64,000 nt of DNA. Source: Phycisphaerales bacterium (GTDB taxonomy: Bacteria; Planctomycetota; Phycisphaerae; Phycisphaerales; SM1A02). Every line of letters starts with the position of its first letter. Position 1 is the stretch's first letter. This document shows, piece after piece, positions 3,279-63,737 of the stretch. The notes beneath the pieces were generated by a model. It saw only the letters and a list, made by a program, of their open reading frames with translations, did no database searches and was not told the DNA's origin. The stretch covers positions 248,001-312,000 of the forward strand of contig JAQWNP010000016.1 in assembly GCA_029268515.1 (NCBI GenBank). The letters run 5' to 3'. The position numbers and the translations under genes were made by a program.

Positions 3279-4745
3279 CTATAGGCTCTGCTCAACGACC
3301 TGCATCTCCTTCCATTTCTTCAGTTTCAGACCCAGCGTCCGAACTCCAATTCCGAGCGCTGAAGCACTACGCTGGCGATGCCCATCATGCTTTCTTAGGG
3401 TGGCCACGATCGCATCTCGCTCAATCTGCTCAAGCGTGATATCACCAGCGCAAACGAGATGCTCGTTGACTGTCCAGTAGGAGCCATCAATCACTGGAAT
3501 GTTATGAACCCTGGTATTGACTGGCTTGGTTTCAATTGCAACGCTAAAACGATCTTTCGCAGTAGAACCTAACCAGGGCCCAACAAGTGATTCCTGAATC
3601 ATGTCATTACTTGATAGCACTGCGGCTCGTTCGCATACATTTTGAAGCTCCCGAACATTACCTGGCCAGGCATATTGCATAAGCCGTTGCATTGCTTGCG
3701 GTTCGAATTGCTTGACGTGTCGTCCTTCACGCTGGGCGACCTGCTGAAGGAAGTGAGCGGTCAGCAAAGGAATATCATCTGTATGCTCTCGTAACGGTGG
3801 CATTCGCATTGGCAACACGTTTAGACGGTAGAAAAGATCTTCTCTAAACTTTCCATCACGAACTTCGGCTTGCAAATCACGATTAGAAGTCGCGATGACA
3901 CGAACGTCTACCGAGCGACTCGTACTGGAACCAACCCTCTCAAATGCCTGTTCTTGCAATACACGCAAGAGTTTAGCTTGTAGTTCTGGCGCTATCTCAC
4001 TGATTTCATCAAGCAGTAGCGTACCGCCATCAGCTAATTCAAAACGACCCTTACGTAGTTTATCTGCCCCAGTAAAAGCACCTCGCTCATGTCCAAACAA
4101 CTCAGACTCAAGCAGGGTCGACGACAGCGCCGCACAGTTGAGTGCTAGAAATGGGCCCTTAGACCGTTGGCTTTGTTCGTGTATTGATCGAGCAGCCACT
4201 TCTTTTCCAGAACCAGATTCACCACACAAGAGGACTGTCGCATGACTGCATGCAATTTTGGCAATCTCTTGCTTGATGGATTGCATGGTCATGCCACCTC
4301 CAACCAGTGCATGAGCAGGCATAAGTGAAGCATCCGATGTTTGAGACATCGATGCACGAAGAATTTGATTCTCTTTGACTAAACGACTGTGTTCAATTGC
4401 ACGCTCTACTGTCTGCAGAAGAATATCACCACTAAATGGTTTCGTAAGATAGTCATAAGCACCGCGCTTCATTGCTTCAACAGCTGTTTCAATTGACCCA
4501 TATGCAGTCATTACCACAACTGGAACCTGATCATCAATTGGCCCAATAGCGTCAAGAAGCCCCAGGCCATCCATTTCTGGCATCTGTAGATCTGTGACTA
4601 TCGCATCAAAAGTTCGCTGCGATACGCGCTGCAAAGCAGTAACACCATTGACAGCAGTGACGACCGTATGCCCCTTCTGAGAGAGCGTGCTTGCAACACT
4701 GTCACGCATCATTTCTTTATCATCAACAACAAGAATAGTACTCAC
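3279..4745 (-). CDS. Sigma54-dependent response regulator (FlrC/FlgR/NtrC type)
   Basis: A 488-aa activator in three parts. The receiver domain is at 1-120, with phospho-acceptor Asp52 in TDLQMP and Lys102. The AAA+ domain is at about 148-385, with Walker A GESGSGKE at 175-182, the sigma54-contact loop GAFTGA at 222-227 and Walker B LLLDE. A Fis-like helix-turn-helix occupies about 440-485. It starts inside the kinase stop codon (ATGA overlap), so the two form a two-component pair. Position directly before flgB indicates control of the rod/MS-ring operon; the exact target set is inferred. Confidence 0.93.
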   Translation of the reverse strand: MSTILVVDDKEMMRDSVASTLSQKGHTVVTAVNGVTALQRVSQRTFDAIVTDLQMPEMDGLGLLDAIGPIDDQVPVVVMTAYGSIETAVEAMKRGAYDYLTKPFSGDILLQTVERAIEHSRLVKENQILRASMSQTSDASLMPAHALVGGGMTMQSIKQEIAKIACSHATVLLCGESGSGKEVAARSIHEQSQRSKGPFLALNCAALSSTLLESELFGHERGAFTGADKLRKGRFELADGGTLLLDEISEIAPELQAKLLRVLQEQAFERVGSSTSRSVDVRVIATSNRDLQAEVRDGKFREDLFYRLNVLPMRMPPLREHTDDIPLLTAHFLQQVAQREGRHVKQFEPQAMQRLMQYAWPGNVRELQNVCERAAVLSSNDMIQESLVGPWLGSTAKDRFSVAIETKPVNTRVHNIPVIDGSYWTVNEHLVCAGDITLEQIERDAIVATLRKHDGHRQRSASALGIGVRTLGLKLKKWKEMQVVEQSL

Positions 4746-5698
4746 GGTTGCTTCTCCGTGTCATAAAAGCCTAGTGCTGTGTCATGCCGCCCGATCACGC
4801 AATCGGCAGACGATGCTTCCTTAGGTTGGACACCGTCTGGTGGTAGACATAGTTCAATCCGCGTACCTTTACCCTCTTTACTTCGAACCTGAACATGTCC
4901 ACCATGTGCATCAACAATGCGGTGAACAATCGCAAGACCAAGGCCCGTACCTGTTGCTCGCGTCGTAAAAAATGGATTAAAAATTCGCCCAAGCGCCTTT
5001 GCAGGAATCCCTGGGCCATAGTCCTCAACGGCAATAACCACACGATCCATACGCTGGCCATTAGAACACCGAACGTCAGCTCGAAACACTTCTAAGCTCA
5101 CCATCGGTTCATCATCTGCCTCCAGCAGACTCGCCTCAACTGCATTACGAAGCACATTTGAAATCGCTTGCACTAACAATCCCGAATCTGCCAACAACAC
5201 TTGGTCGCTAATAGACTGGTTTAAAATGACATTATGATGACCTAATAATCCATCACAATTAGCAAGCACTCTTAAAATGAGTTCTTCCGACTGCGTTTCA
5301 TCAACACGCAATGAAGACTCTCTTGCAAACAACAAGATATCTCGCACGATCGAATCAAGGCCTGTAATAGCTCTATCAATTTTTTTGCAAATCTTGTTTT
5401 GGCCAACAGTTGCCGCCTCGTCATTACCAAGCAGTTGCACATAGAGGCGAATTGAGCCAAGAGGATTTCGAATCTCATGAGCAATACCAGCAGCCATTTC
5501 TCCCAGAGCTGCAAGATCGCGAGATCGACGAAGCTGTTCATTCGCCTCAGCCAACTCGCTTTTAAGATGAGTCACTTCTGTCTGAAGTGTTCCATGAGTT
5601 GATTCCAGCCGCTCTGTGGCGAGCGTTACTGACCGCATTAACTCTCTCAGCTCTTCAACTGTCGTAGCTTTACGCGGTGTTGTTTCAATCGTTGTCAT
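4742..5698 (-). CDS. Soluble sensor histidine kinase (FlrB/FlgS-like)
   Basis: A 318-aa kinase with no membrane segment. The N-terminal third is a coiled coil with no PAS pattern I can see. The phospho-acceptor is in GIAHEIRNPLGSIRL (His74). An N box (NVLRNAVEA), G1 (DYGPGIP), F (FNPFFTT) and G2 (GTGLGLAI) follow. It is the likely partner of the sigma54 regulator it overlaps by 4 bases. The start chosen is the ATG with TAGGGA ahead of it, 7 bases after the previous stop; a longer frame would run 65 bases into the upstream gene. The input is probably cytoplasmic, for example assembly state, by analogy with FlgS. Confidence 0.9.
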   Translation of the reverse strand: MTTIETTPRKATTVEELRELMRSVTLATERLESTHGTLQTEVTHLKSELAEANEQLRRSRDLAALGEMAAGIAHEIRNPLGSIRLYVQLLGNDEAATVGQNKICKKIDRAITGLDSIVRDILLFARESSLRVDETQSEELILRVLANCDGLLGHHNVILNQSISDQVLLADSGLLVQAISNVLRNAVEASLLEADDEPMVSLEVFRADVRCSNGQRMDRVVIAVEDYGPGIPAKALGRIFNPFFTTRATGTGLGLAIVHRIVDAHGGHVQVRSKEGKGTRIELCLPPDGVQPKEASSADCVIGRHDTALGFYDTEKQP

Positions 5699-5705
5699 CG
5701 GTTCC

Positions 5706-6224
5706 CTATCCACATTGATCTGCAAATCTCTGCTTGTCCTCTTCATGACCTGTATTCCGATACGCTTCATGTGCTTCTCGGGATTCTGAGAGATCTTTCA
5801 TCTCTTGTTGGACCCGATGACTGCTAACCTCGAGGCGTTCCCGATCTTCCTCGTCCCGACGCATAACGATCCCGAGCAACTCTCCAATTTCTTCAACCAA
5901 GCTCTTAATCTGTATTTTTTCATCTGATGTCGCACCATCAAGCCGCTCATCAAGATGACTTAGCAATGGAGAAAAATCTTCTTGTGTGGTGCTGAATGAA
6001 TCAATCAATTCCTGCCGTTGCGAGAGCAAGCCAATGATTGCATCCGTCCGACCTTCTTTAATCATCGCTTCTTGCTGTGTTGCCCTTGCGACTAGTTCAT
6101 TCACAAGAGTGCGCTGCTGCCGCAATAACTCAATGAGTTCAGCAGCCCACGCCTCAGCGCTGCGGCTCTGATTGTCATTTTTGCTGACATTCTCTTGCAT
6201 CATCGAACCCATACTTTCTGTCAA
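5706..6224 (-). CDS. Small coiled-coil protein, possibly FlgN-like flagellar chaperone
   Basis: 172 aa, nearly all predicted helix, with no signal peptide or membrane segment. Residues about 25-140 have the length and spacing of FlgN-type chaperones (a helix with LVARATQQEAMIKEGR, a second with LLSQRQELID). These chaperones bind hook-junction proteins and feed them to the export gate. The sequence alone does not prove this. It lies between a TPR protein (4-bp overlap) and the flagellar kinase, which supports a flagellar job. The C-terminal 40 residues are highly charged. Alternative: an uncharacterised regulator of the kinase. Confidence 0.55.
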   Translation of the reverse strand: MTESMGSMMQENVSKNDNQSRSAEAWAAELIELLRQQRTLVNELVARATQQEAMIKEGRTDAIIGLLSQRQELIDSFSTTQEDFSPLLSHLDERLDGATSDEKIQIKSLVEEIGELLGIVMRRDEEDRERLEVSSHRVQQEMKDLSESREAHEAYRNTGHEEDKQRFADQCG

Positions 6225-57925: not shown

Positions 57926-58858
57926 ATGACAAATCTACCTATGACAGCCTCCAGCCCCATCACCTCAAGCCGGGTTATTGCCGCGGATATCAAGCTGTCT
58001 CACAGCATCTTCGCTTTACCCTTTGCCCTTCTGGCAGCATTTTTGGTTGTCGCCAAGACCGGTGGATCAGTTGATTGGGTCAAATTCAGTAGTCAGCTTC
58101 TGTTAATCATACTAGCTATGATCTCGGCTCGAACGGTCGCCATGCTTTCCAATCGAATTCTTGATCGCAAGATCGATGCCACCAACCCACGAACGAAGAA
58201 TCGTGCCATTCCTTCGGGAAGACTGCCCCTTAGACATGCAATTACGACCCTGCTGACGGTGGCTCTCGTCTTCATGCTCATCTGCTTGGCCTTCGCTCTG
58301 TTTTTTGGCAACTGGTGGCCCCTCATCCTGGGCATTCCAGTGCTTCTATGGATTGCTGTTTATCCACTATTAAAACGTTGGACCTGGGCTTGCCACCTTT
58401 ACTTAGGCTCTGCCTTAGCTCTGAGTCCGATTGCTGTGGCCATTGCGATAGAACCCAATGCCCTTTTTACAATTCCCGCCATCTGGCTGATTGCTGGAAT
58501 GGTGCTGTGTTGGGTCGCGGGCTTCGATGTCATCTATGCACTTCAAGATGAATCAATTGATCGCAGCCAAGGCATCTCTAGTATCCCCGCTCGTTTTGGC
58601 AGTGCCACCGCTCTTTGGCTAAGCCGCCTACTCCATCTCCTTGCAGTCGGATTCCTGGTAGCAACGGTCCTTATTGAACCAATCTTTGGCCTACTATTCT
58701 GGATTGGCATCGCGACTGTCTCTGCCCTGTTGCTCTATGAACATCTCACAGTCGCTCGCTGGGGCACCACTCGGATGGCTTTGGCATTCTTCACACTTAA
58801 TGGCATTATCAGCTGCATCCTTGGTGGACTGGGCATCATCGATACGCTCATTAACTAA
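57926..58858 (+). CDS. UbiA-family prenyltransferase, probably MqnP-like
   Basis: 310 aa with eight to nine membrane helices. Both Asp-rich motifs are present: NRILDRKIDATNPRTKNRAIPSG and DVIYALQDESIDRSQGISSIPARFG. The second form is typical of the UbiA-like enzyme in the futalosine route to menaquinone (MqnP) and of 4-hydroxybenzoate prenyltransferases. Which substrate is used cannot be told here. The start is the ATG after an in-frame GTG. After the stop, CCCAC-TT-GTGGG makes a short stem without a full U-run. Confidence 0.88.
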   Translation: MTNLPMTASSPITSSRVIAADIKLSHSIFALPFALLAAFLVVAKTGGSVDWVKFSSQLLLIILAMISARTVAMLSNRILDRKIDATNPRTKNRAIPSGRLPLRHAITTLLTVALVFMLICLAFALFFGNWWPLILGIPVLLWIAVYPLLKRWTWACHLYLGSALALSPIAVAIAIEPNALFTIPAIWLIAGMVLCWVAGFDVIYALQDESIDRSQGISSIPARFGSATALWLSRLLHLLAVGFLVATVLIEPIFGLLFWIGIATVSALLLYEHLTVARWGTTRMALAFFTLNGIISCILGGLGIIDTLIN

Positions 58859-60587: not shown

Positions 60588-62495
60588 TTAGTTACTGTCT
60601 TCCTTGACTTCATAATCAGCATCGATCACGTCATCAGCATTTGCTTCTGGGCTCTCTGGGGCCGAATCACCGGATGGCTGAGCCTGGTCCGCTGAAGTCG
60701 ACTCATAGACAGCCTTGCCAAGTTGGATTGCGGCTTCATTAAGCTGCTTCAACGATGCTTCAATCGCTGCCTTATCTTCGCCCTTGACCTTATCGTCAAG
60801 GTTGCTCAAGGCTGATTCAATGCTTCCGCGCACATCTGGCGAGACTTTGTCGCCGTGCTCTTCAAGCTGCTTCTTCGTTGTATGAAGCACTTGTTCAGCC
60901 GCATTCTTTAGATCTACAAGAGCTCGACGCTCACGATCCTCGTCTGCATGCGATTCTGCCTCTTGCTTCATACGATCGACTTCCTCAGTCGAGAGGCCTG
61001 ATGAACCAGTAATCTCAATCTTCTGACTCTGCCCAGTGGCTTTATCAGTTGCCAATACGTTCAGAATGCCGTTGGCGTCAATGGCAAACTCAACTTCAAT
61101 TTGTGGCATTCCACGAGGAGCAGGAGCAATACCGCTTAGATCAAAGCGACCCAATGTGCGGTTATCCTTTGCAAAATCACGTTCACCTTGCAGAACATGA
61201 ATGGTCACAGAAGTCTGGCTATCCGCCGCTGTTGAGAAGACTTCTTTTTTCGAAGTTGGGATCGTTGTATTTTTATCAATGAGCTTGGTCATCACACCAC
61301 CGAGGGTTTCAACACCAAGGCTCAATGGAGTTACGTCGAGCAACAACACGTCTTTGACGTCACCCTGCAGAACACCTGCTTGAATTGCTGCACCAATAGC
61401 AACAACCTCATCTGGGTTTATTGACTTATCAAGTTCGGCTGTTCCGAAAATCTCTTTGGCAAGCTCCTGCACTCTTGGAATACGAGTAGAACCACCAACC
61501 ATGACCACGTCACCAATATCTGATGGGCTCAGGCCAGCATCCTTAAGTGAGGTTTCACAGGGCCCACGCAAACGTTCGAATAGATCATTACAAATACTGT
61601 CAAAAGTCGCTCGTGTGATCTTGACCTGAAGGTGCTTCGGCCCGTTTTGATCTGCCGTGATAAATGGAAGGTTGACATCTGTCTCCATTTGCTGTGACAG
61701 CTCACATTTCGCCTTCTCTGCGGCTTCTTTCAGACGCTGAAGTGCCATTGCATCGCTACGAATATCGATGCCTTCCATTTTCTTAAACTCATCAGCAACA
61801 TAATCAATCAATCGTTGATCAAAATCATCGCCGCCCAAGTGTCCATCACCACTTGTTGATAGCACTTCAAAGACACCATCCCCAACATCGAGCAGAGAGA
61901 TATCAAAAGTACCACCACCCAAGTCGAACACTGCAATTTTCTTATTGGTGTTCTTTTCAAGACCATAAGCAAGCGCAGCAGCAGTCGGCTCATTGATGAT
62001 TCGCTCGACTGTCAAGCCTGCGATTTCACCGGCATCTTTCGTCGCTTTCCTTTGCGAATCGTTGAAATAAGCAGGAACGGTAATCACAGCCCGACTAATT
62101 GACTCACCAAGATAGTCTTCCGCTGTTCGTTTGAGCTCCTGAAGAATCATTGCTGAAATCTCAGGTGGCGTATATGACTTACCTCGGGCGTCGACGGTTA
62201 CGAGATCGTCGCTTCCACCTTCGATCCCGTAGGGAACAAGCTTCTCCTCAGACTCGACCTCATTATGCCGGCGTCCCATGAAACGCTTGATGGAGAAGAC
62301 GGTATTTTCCGGATTCGTGATCTGCTGGTGCTTTGCCGCCTGACCAACCAGCCGATCTCCCTTATCTGTAAATGCAACAACCGACGGGGTCGTGCGATTA
62401 CCTGATGCGTTGATGAGCACTTTGGGTTGCTCACCTTCCATAACGGCGACCACAGAGTTGGTGGTGCCTAAATCGATTCCAATAATTTTTGACAT
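60588..62495 (-). CDS. dnaK: Chaperone DnaK (Hsp70)
   Basis: 635 aa from the ATG ([21 protein letters not shown]) that follows GGAGG; the frame is open 34 codons further but that part is not family-like. ATPase domain with [22 protein letters not shown] and [11 protein letters not shown], linker [12 protein letters not shown], then the substrate domain and a C-terminal lid ending in EVKEDSN. It refolds proteins with DnaJ and GrpE, neither of which is beside it. It is a single-gene unit with its own terminator and a sigma54-like promoter. Confidence 0.97.
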
Positions 62496-62589
62496 AGTGT
62501 TTATCCTCCAGGAAGCAGGGCTCAAGGCCTCTGACTTCCGAATGCGACCACAACCAACTGTGAGCGCACCTTCACTACCAATAGAAGAA

Positions 62590-62605
62590 TGCAACATTGA
62601 TGCCA
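62590..62605 (-). promoter_or_regulatory. Sigma54-like promoter upstream of dnaK
   Basis: The minus strand reads TGGCATCAATGTTGCA, matching the sigma54 consensus TGGCACG-N4-TTGCA at TGGCA and TTGCA with GG and GC exactly 10 bases apart. Transcription would start near 62579, giving an 84-base dnaK leader. No CIRCE element and no sigma32-type promoter is evident between it and the gene. Function is inferred. Confidence 0.5.
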
Positions 62606-62623
62606 GTTTTTACCCCCCCTAAG

Positions 62624-62640
62624 ACCCCCTTTAAGAGGGT
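62624..62640. promoter_or_regulatory. 17-base dyad upstream of the dnaK promoter
   Basis: ACCCCCTT-T-AAGAGGGT is an inverted repeat with one mismatch in eight. It lies 19 bases upstream of the -24 element. A second C-run (62613-62619) lies between. It could be the binding site for an activator of the sigma54-like promoter, although such sites are usually 80-150 bases away. Confidence 0.35.
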
Positions 62641-62714
62641 TTGTCGCACCGTAACGGCAATAAGTGGAGCGCCGGCTGCCAGTTTGGCGGCCTCATGGGC
62701 ATTACACTCTAGCG

Positions 62715-63737
62715 ATGCTGACCATTGGCCAAAAGAGCCTCCCGACACCCCTACTGCTTGCGCCAATGGCCGGCTACTGTGATCTCGCCACACGCCTGAT
62801 CTGTCGTGAGCTCGGCGGAGTGGGGCTCGCCAGCACCGATCTACTGAACTCTCATAGCGTGCTCGCAGGGGGCCACCGCGTTAACCGCCTCACGGCGACC
62901 TGCGATTCTGACCGGCCTCTTTCGATGCAGCTCTATGGGAATCACAATGATCCCCTTCCAGATGCAGCTCGCTGGGCTGTTGATCAGGGCGCTACGACGG
63001 TCGACATAAACATGGGATGCCCCGTCGACAAAGTCTGCAAAACAAATGGTGGATCTCTCCTCCTTTGTGATGTTGACCAAACCGTAAAGCTCTCCGCCAA
63101 AATAGTAGCGGCGATCAGCGCTAGCAACGTACCAGTAACAGCCAAGATTCGCCTAGGGTGGGCATCAGATCAGATCATCGCACCGCAATTAGCAGCGCAG
63201 CTCGAATCAGTCGGAATACAAGCAATTACTGTTCATGGCCGTACGACACAACAGCGTTTTGGAGGCCGTGTTGATCTCTCTGCCATCAGAGATGTCGTGC
63301 GTGCCGTCAAGAAAATACCCGTGATTGGCAATGGCGATATACGTGAGCCTGAGGATGCCATTGAAATGATGGCCGCAACAGGCTGCCAAGGCGTCATGAT
63401 CGGACGAGGCGCACTACGTTGCCCATGGATCTTCAACCGCACCTGGGAGCTCATGCAAACAGGCCACAAAAGTCCAGAACCGCTTGCGGTCGAGAAGATT
63501 GATATTATTTCCCGCCACTTAGATCTGCTTTTAGAACATGCAGACGAGTTCACTGCCGTGCTCTGCCTAAGCAAACGCATTAGCTGGTATGGCAAGACAA
63601 TGCGACATATCAAAGGGCTCAAAGAGCAAATTCGTCTTGCCAAAGACTCGAAGACAATACGACAGGCGCTTGCCCAATGGAGAGGCAAACTCAACTGTGA
63701 ACCCGCATCAGCGATTGACGCTATTGCCTGCTTTTAA
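62715..63737 (+). CDS. tRNA-dihydrouridine synthase (Dus family)
   Basis: 340 aa from the ATG before [22 protein letters not shown]; the frame is open to a GTG 17 codons upstream. FMN barrel with [21 protein letters not shown] (catalytic Cys in GCP), [27 protein letters not shown] and [13 protein letters not shown]. It reduces uridines in tRNA. The DusB-like group is most probable. It diverges from dnaK. Confidence 0.93.

What the first reader, a model, noticed from the sequence alone, without database searches (positions are those of the whole stretch)
62590..62640. dnaK appears to have a sigma54 promoter and an upstream dyad
The sequence upstream of dnaK matches the -24/-12 consensus at TGGCA and TTGCA with exact GG-N10-GC spacing. 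A 17-base dyad lies just behind it, and neither CIRCE nor a sigma32-like site is seen. A major chaperone driven directly by sigma54 would be unusual. It would link protein folding to an enhancer-binding activator. A chance match is possible, as only about ten positions are informative.
Basis: partly seen in the sequence, partly recalled or inferred. Interest (0 to 1): 0.55.

Follow-up and report, generated by a model that had tools for sequence, protein, structure and literature searches.

The report
Sigma54 enhancer control of dnaK
In this planctomycete and many relatives the heat-shock chaperone gene dnaK, with other chaperone genes, appears to be switched on by sigma54 RNA polymerase and one dedicated enhancer-binding regulator instead of the usual heat-shock sigma factor or repressor, and both the DNA site and the likely regulator can now be named and tested.

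Summary
The -24/-12 promoter is real: TGGCATCAATGTTGCA (62605..62590, minus strand) precedes dnaK, and TGGCA-N6-TTGC is kept in 47 of 50 family and 70 of 75 named upstreams read. The conserved element lies further up: an inverted repeat YGCCA-N3-TGGCAG (62690..62676), mostly at helix-phased distances from the promoter, as expected of an enhancer. In this genome the same repeat precedes groEL, hsp20, hsp20-hsp20 and a groES-groEL operon. The likely activator is one NtrC-type regulator, "bEBP-D", coded outside the window: the only sigma54 activator found in 11 of 17 relatives scanned, with its orthologue directly upstream of dnaK in 10 of 30 genomes outside the class. Sigma54 enrichment of chaperone families in Planctomycetota is already predicted in print (PMC12316311, passages read); I saw no enhancer or activator named there. 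Everything here is sequence inference; I had no transcript data.

The parts
60588..62495 (-). dnaK (635 aa; ATG at 62495..62493, GGAGG ribosome site at 62509..62505)
   Evidence: (HSP70 855.6 bits; NCBIfam DnaK over cut-off)
62601..62605 (-). -24 element TGGCA
   Evidence: kept in relatives
62590..62594 (-). -12 element TTGCA; the transcription start is expected near 62579 (inference from the usual sigma54 geometry)
   Evidence: kept in relatives
62676..62690 (-). proposed enhancer: inverted repeat CCGCCAAACTGGCAG, centre about 78 bp upstream of the -24 element, between dnaK and the divergent dus-like gene

Best explanation
dnaK is transcribed from a sigma54 (-24/-12) promoter. It is activated from the inverted repeat YGCCA-N3-TGGCAG by one dedicated NtrC-type response regulator, here called bEBP-D (receiver, AAA+ domain with a GAFTGA-type loop, Fis-type HTH; G000:C10:180370-181752, outside the window). 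The same repeat stands before groEL, hsp20, hsp20-hsp20 and a small-protein-groES-groEL operon in this genome, so sigma54 plus bEBP-D would form a chaperone (heat-shock) control circuit. Shown by sequence: promoter, repeat, their phased spacing, the repeat at other chaperone genes, rpoN, and the bEBP-D gene with its neighbourhood in relatives. Inferred: that bEBP-D binds the repeat, that phosphorylation by a histidine kinase (encoded beside it in some relatives) switches it on, and that heat or unfolded protein is the signal.
For: TGGCA-N6-TTGC in 47 of 50 and 70 of 75 dnaK upstreams, 5 of 6,250 shuffles. Repeat at 9 of 10 core positions or better in 36 of 47 and 62 of 70 of these, shuffles 12 of 2,340. 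Spacing between repeat and promoter clusters with a best period of 10.8 bp over 83 distinct upstreams. Composite repeat+promoter: 38 hits in 37 of 101 family genomes, 0 for the backward pattern; 24 of the 30 hits held as loci are dnaK, 1 hsp20, 1 groEL, 2 small protein + groEL. 4 of the 7 exact repeats of the own genome precede chaperone genes. bEBP-D orthologue in 17 of 17 relatives scanned and the only activator found in 11. Orthologue directly upstream of dnaK in 10 of 30 genomes outside the class; one clade at 98/96 support. D-type recognition helix in the best hit of 13 of 14 genomes with and 1 of 12 without the repeat.
Against: No expression, binding or start-site data. No bEBP-D gene beside dnaK in this genome or family as far as seen. 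G005 and G017 have bEBP-D as their only activator but no recognisable repeat at dnaK. 29 of 60 dnaK upstreams outside the class lack a repeat at 10 of 12 or better, and G200 has the D-type helix without the repeat, G130 the repeat without the helix. 7 of 83 distances fall outside the main clusters (99, 100, 133, 160, 162, 167, 171 bp). The own groEL1 repeat has no clear -24/-12 box within 45-180 bp, and the two hsp20 sites sit at 87 and 88 bp, about 3 bp off the phase of the 84-85 cluster. Some one-activator genomes have 15-20 more TGGCAY-N5-TTGC sites than the backward control, mostly not read, so the regulon may be wider than chaperones. Most genomes are draft assemblies, so an activator may be missed. 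Whether rpoH or hrcA genes are present here was not searched; the R. baltica paper says rpoH is present in that planctomycete.
Confidence: 0.83

Rival explanations
1. The sigma54 promoter and the repeat are real, but the repeat is bound by another protein (another sigma54 activator or a repressor), not bEBP-D.
For: The own genome has three more genuine activators, A, B and C. No binding data. G200 and G130 break the correlation between D-type helix and repeat. G005 and G017 keep bEBP-D without a recognisable repeat.
Against: 11 of 17 relatives scanned have only the D orthologue; 10 of 30 genomes outside the class have it directly upstream of dnaK; 13 of 14 against 1 of 12 for helix and repeat. 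B has its own kinase gene and a fliF-like gene nearby. A repressor would not explain why a sigma54 promoter needs an activator.
Confidence: 0.09
2. dnaK has the sigma54 promoter as a minor or condition-specific one (for example starvation or development), while heat induction runs through another, undetected promoter or regulator.
For: Sigma54 circuits usually serve nutrient or envelope signals (established knowledge). R. baltica induces dnaK by heat without change of rpoN (passage of PMC2754498), though sigma54 need not change in amount. The heat signal is not shown here.
Against: The repeat stands before several heat-shock chaperone genes, not before a mixed set, among the sites that were read. 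No sigma70-like promoter was found by the scan; no CIRCE or sigma32-like site above shuffles in the own upstream.
Confidence: 0.2
3. The -24/-12 match is a chance match.
For: TGGCAY-N5-TTGC occurs 33 times in the genome against 6 for the backward pattern, and many sites lie inside genes.
Against: Kept at the same gene in 47 of 50 and 70 of 75 upstreams while spacer bases vary.
Confidence: 0.01

Closest known systems
Survey of sigma54 regulons by class-specific matrices (PMC12316311, 2025; passages seen)
   Different: In the passages seen no enhancer, activator or phased spacing is given for these genes; here the repeat, the candidate activator, the gene neighbourhood and the family-wide count are added.
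Sigma54-dependent grpE and groES of Bacteroidota (stated in a passage of PMC12316311)
   Same: Heat-shock genes under sigma54.
   Different: Another phylum; the activator and enhancer there were not compared here.
NtrC-type two-component activators (NtrC, AtoC, ZraR)
   Same: Receiver, AAA+ and Fis-type HTH; activates sigma54 polymerase from an upstream inverted repeat.
   Different: bEBP-D reaches no NCBIfam equivalog cut-off (AtoC model best, 385 against 714 bits); its proposed targets are chaperone genes.
Bradyrhizobium groESL3 under NifA and sigma54 (recalled, not looked up)
   Same: A chaperonin operon behind a sigma54 promoter.
   Different: One of several groESL copies tied to nitrogen fixation (recalled); here dnaK itself and other chaperone genes share one repeat.
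Sigma32, HrcA/CIRCE and HspR heat-shock control (recalled)
   Same: Same target genes.
   Different: No matching sites above shuffles upstream of this dnaK; sigma54 and an enhancer instead.

Membership tests
sigma54-dependent promoter | -24 GG and -12 GC elements with 10-base spacing, close to TGGCAY-N5-TTGC | tested here: met
   kept in relatives
sigma54-dependent promoter | rpoN in the genome | tested here: met
   (PF04552, 198.8 bits)
sigma54-dependent promoter | mRNA start about 12 nt below the -12 element, lost without rpoN | not testable with these tools
   needs RNA and mutants
enhancer of a sigma54 activator | conserved inverted repeat upstream, on a fixed face of the helix relative to the promoter | tested here: met
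   (best period 10.8 bp over 83 upstreams; 34 distinct distances at 10.6 bp give p about 3e-4; kinship inflates the former; 7 of 83 distances are outside the main clusters)
NtrC-type sigma54 activator (bEBP-D) | receiver + sigma54 interaction domain with GAFTGA loop + Fis-type HTH | tested here: met
   (PF00072, PF00158, PF02954); loop G, T and final A in 56 of 56 and A (50) or S (6) at position 2, own copy GSFTGA
phosphorylated response regulator (bEBP-D) | phospho-acceptor Asp and conserved Lys of the receiver | tested here: met
   Asp in 54 of 56, Lys in 55 of 56
AtoC / NtrC / ZraR as named equivalogs | score over the NCBIfam cut-off | tested here: not met
   (AtoC 385 of 714, NtrC 379 of 559, ZraR 340 of 760 bits)
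HrcA-CIRCE control | CIRCE repeat upstream of dnaK | tested here: not met
   own best 10 of 18, within shuffles; the hrcA gene itself was not searched
sigma32 heat-shock regulon | sigma32-type promoter at dnaK and an rpoH gene | tested here: inconclusive
   best site 7 of 12, no better than shuffles; rpoH gene not searched

The most novel reading that the evidence does not exclude
In a large part of the phylum Planctomycetota the classical heat-shock control by sigma32 or HrcA is replaced by an enhancer-based two-component circuit: histidine kinase to bEBP-D to sigma54, acting through CTGCCA-N3-TGGCAG on dnaK, groESL, hsp20 and clpB. In streamlined relatives with a single activator this may be the main job left for sigma54.
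Probability: 0.7. Interest if true: 0.8.

Novelty: new variant of a known kind. Interest (0 to 1): 0.72.

Why it matters
Bacterial heat-shock control is usually described as sigma32, HrcA/CIRCE, HspR or CtsR (recalled). In a model planctomycete, chaperone induction by heat was measured and the authors wrote of 'a significantly different response cascade' (passage of PMC2754498). This report gives a concrete circuit to test: one sigma factor, one activator, one 15-bp enhancer and a list of targets. Sigma54 promoters stay silent until an ATP-driven activator remodels polymerase, so chaperone induction would depend on a signal sensed by that activator and probably on phosphorylation. Relatives with one activator are a simple natural system for finding the signal.

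Tried and rejected
A hairpin between repeat and promoter as a conserved part: several relatives (e.g. L008, L025, L032) have a GC hairpin with a T run just before the -24 box, but over 83 segments the mean folding z-score is only -0.40, with 10 below -2; the control stretch upstream of the repeat gave 4 of 95 below -2 and its mean could not be computed. Left unexplained. A known RNA element in the leader: no Rfam match up to E 0.5 in 62400..62760. Activators A, B or C as the dnaK activator: disfavoured against D. The second exact -24/-12 match in the window (58181..58167, minus): no repeat near it, inside a prenyltransferase-like frame, probably chance. Counting promoter matches in one-activator genomes as a regulon size: the backward control is imperfect and the list was cut, so only G039 (all 7 sites) and G042 (all 11) were read in full; from the other seven genomes only some sites were looked at, of which one other than dnaK (L323, inside an open frame) has a repeat-like stretch at 9 of 10.

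Rows dropped or not fetched: of 57 family genomes with a dnaK hit, 50 upstreams were read; G022, G025, G045, G056 and G058 were not fetched, G011 and G024 are cut at a contig end. In 2 of the 50 (G052, G055) less than 350 bases lie upstream. L204 and L273 gave no start by my pattern. L218-L221 (labelled Deltaproteobacteria, Desulfuromonadales or Geobacter) are outgroups left out of the counts; none shows such a promoter, but L219 has only 56 bases upstream. The family and named sets overlap: 175 distinct upstreams among the 193 of all three sets. Of 104 phylum genomes with a dnaK hit, 69 loci (L252-L320) were taken and 68 gave an upstream; 8 of these are from the class and 60 from outside it. 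Of 33 promoter matches in the own genome, 30 were held as loci.

Full report
What was checked. The window's dnaK (62495..60588, minus strand) is preceded by TGGCATCAATGTTGCA at 62605..62590, an exact -24/-12 element with GG-N10-GC spacing. The genome carries rpoN. A consensus scan found no sigma70-like promoter between 62400 and 62800. CIRCE and sigma32-like matches in the own upstream are no better than in shuffles; over all 193 upstreams one reaches 13 of 18 CIRCE positions where shuffles reached 12. No Rfam family matches.

Conservation. dnaK was found in 57 of 61 family genomes and 50 upstreams were read. 47 of 50 hold TGGCA-N6-TTGC; the other three carry one-base variants: L010 TTGT at the -12 box (read by eye), L015 CGGCA and L036 TGGTA at the -24 box. 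A scan of named genomes gave 80 loci, most labelled Phycisphaerales, Phycisphaerae, Phycisphaeraceae or Planctomycetota; of the first 76, 75 were usable and 70 hold the element somewhere in 450 bases. Shuffles hold it in 5 of 6,250 cases. The bases between the boxes vary while TGGCA and TTGC stay. The two sets overlap in genomes.

The enhancer. Aligning upstreams on the -24 box showed a second conserved element: (C/T)(T/C)GCCA-N3-TGGCAG (base counts over 93 distinct upstreams). In the window it is CCGCCAAACTGGCAG at 62690..62676. At 9 of 10 core positions or better it is present in 36 of 47 family and 62 of 70 named upstreams that have the promoter; shuffles give 12 of 2,340 (at 8 of 10 or better: 41 of 47, 69 of 70, shuffles 176 of 2,340). 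Its distance from the -24 box differs between species but clusters at 64, 73-75, 82-86, 92-97, 104-108, 114-118, 128 and 137-139 bp, with 7 of 83 outside (99, 100, 133, 160, 162, 167, 171). The best period is 10.8 bp over 83 distinct upstreams; taking each of the 34 distances once, period 10.6 gives p about 3e-4. The first figure is inflated by kinship. Helix-phased spacing is what an activator that touches polymerase by DNA looping would leave (established for sigma54 systems).

The regulon. In this genome TGCCA-N3-TGGCA occurs exactly at 7 places against 1 for the backward pattern. Four precede chaperone genes: groEL1; hsp20; hsp20-hsp20; and a 172-aa protein without a Pfam match followed by groES and groEL2. 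The last three have (A/G)GGCAY-N5-TTGC boxes 87, 88 and 128 bp below the repeat; groEL1 has no clear box within 45-180 bp. The other three places have no chaperone gene I could see. dnaK's own repeat has 9 of 10 core positions and so is not among the seven. Over 101 family genomes the repeat-promoter composite gives 38 hits in 37 genomes and none for the backward control. Of the 30 hits held as loci, 24 are dnaK, 1 hsp20, 1 groEL, 2 the small protein with groEL behind it, and 2 have no gene I could call (Pfam for the hsp20 and groEL). In two relatives with one activator all exact promoter matches were read (7 in G039, 11 in G042). Those with a repeat at 8 of 10 or better and a gene start are dnaK and clpB in G039, and dnaK, groEL and the small protein-groEL in G042; one more G039 site (L355) has an 8-of-10 stretch 34 bp away and no recognisable gene (Pfam for clpB and groEL). 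Other one-activator genomes have up to about 20 more such sites than the backward control (G018 25 against 5, G096 30 against 10). Most of these were not read, so the regulon may hold more than chaperones.

The activator. The own genome has four genuine sigma54 activators plus four weak AAA+ hits. B (window 3279-4745) has a kinase gene beside it and a fliF-like gene nearby. Seventeen relatives, chosen mostly for small genomes, were scanned: 11 have exactly one activator at E 1e-20 or better, and all 17 have an orthologue of own D (67-76% identity). Sigma54 polymerase needs an activator (established), so in the 11 the dnaK promoter should use this one, unless another was missed in a draft assembly. 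G005 and G017 are among the 11 but show no recognisable repeat at dnaK. Outside the class, the place of the best D homologue was compared with that of dnaK. In 10 of 30 genomes with a D-clade hit (G105, G112, G116, G120, G122, G126, G132, G162, G167, G186; 8 families) it lies directly upstream of dnaK on the same strand; in G201 it lies 1.8 kb upstream. In the 30, many pairs lie on different contigs, and G195 has no dnaK hit at the cut-off. Of five such loci whose flanks I read (L396, L397, L399, L401, L406), four have a histidine kinase gene directly before bEBP-D; so has L377 within the class. In this genome and in L372, L375, L228, L226, L236, L400 and L386 I saw none in the flanks read. 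A maximum-likelihood tree of 88 activators puts all 56 D-type proteins on one side of a branch (support 98/96, 98% of 200 bootstrap trees), with own A, B and C on the other. The helix ERT(L/M)YRK is found in 55 of 56, the 56th being cut short.

A test outside the family. I chose 14 genomes with the repeat at dnaK (2 of the class, 12 outside) and 12 without, by the dnaK upstream alone, all among genomes without a D hit at 1e-120. The D-type helix is in the best hit of 13 of 14 and 1 of 12; three of the 12 had no hit at 1e-92 and count as lacking it (Fisher one-sided about 2e-5, worked by hand). The exceptions are G130 and G200. Over 60 dnaK upstreams outside the class, 23 have a promoter-like box (9 of 12 or better) and a repeat at 10 of 12 or better, distance not constrained, against 0.1 expected from shuffles; 31 have the repeat, 29 do not. 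The system is thus much older than the family but not universal in the phylum.

Mechanism. Most likely a kinase phosphorylates bEBP-D, which binds the repeat, assembles its ATPase ring, loops to sigma54 polymerase waiting at -24/-12 and opens it, so that dnaK and the other chaperone genes rise together. Receiver residues are nearly invariant (phospho-acceptor Asp in 54 of 56), so phosphorylation is the likely switch. The signal, the kinase in Phycisphaerales, and any feedback by DnaK are unknown.

What is known. A 2025 survey predicts sigma54 promoters enriched in chaperone families of Planctomycetia and, less, Phycisphaerae, and states that grpE and groES of some Bacteroidota are sigma54-dependent (PMC12316311; passages). 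In Rhodopirellula baltica heat induces dnaK, groEL, grpE, dnaJ, hsp20 and clpB; the authors say that rpoH, rpoE and rpoN are present and were not seen to be regulated (PMC2754498; passages). A 2004 paper on Pirellula sigma54 activators could not be read and may hold part of this. In six paper searches I saw no listing that describes the repeat or a dedicated chaperone activator in planctomycetes; subscription papers are mostly not held, so that is no proof.

Noticed in passing
window 3279-4745 (-) and 4742-5770 (-): A sigma54 activator (own B) with an adjoining histidine kinase gene, near a fliF-like gene (123-1808, -): probably flagellar control, not the dnaK activator.
   Followed up: partly
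L059 827-1342 (-); L132 2998-3519 (+); L133 7089-7625 (-): A small protein of about 170 aa, receiver-like by eye but without a Pfam match for two copies tested, stands between the repeat and groEL (with groES between in this genome); function unknown.
   Followed up: partly
L008, L009, L013, L025, L032 (dnaK upstreams): A GC-rich hairpin followed by a T run, like an intrinsic terminator, lies directly before the -24 box between repeat and promoter; over the whole set it is only weakly above chance.
   Followed up: partly
L396, L397, L399, L406: In other planctomycete families a short histidine kinase gene stands directly before bEBP-D, which in L397, L399 and L406 stands directly before dnaK.
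   Followed up: partly
window 58167-58181 (-): A second exact TGGCAY-N5-TTGC match inside a prenyltransferase-like frame, 324 bp before proS, without the repeat; probably chance.
   Followed up: partly
G057 and G024: Two family genomes have a second, more distant dnaK-like gene (56-60% identity); its upstream was not read.
   Followed up: no
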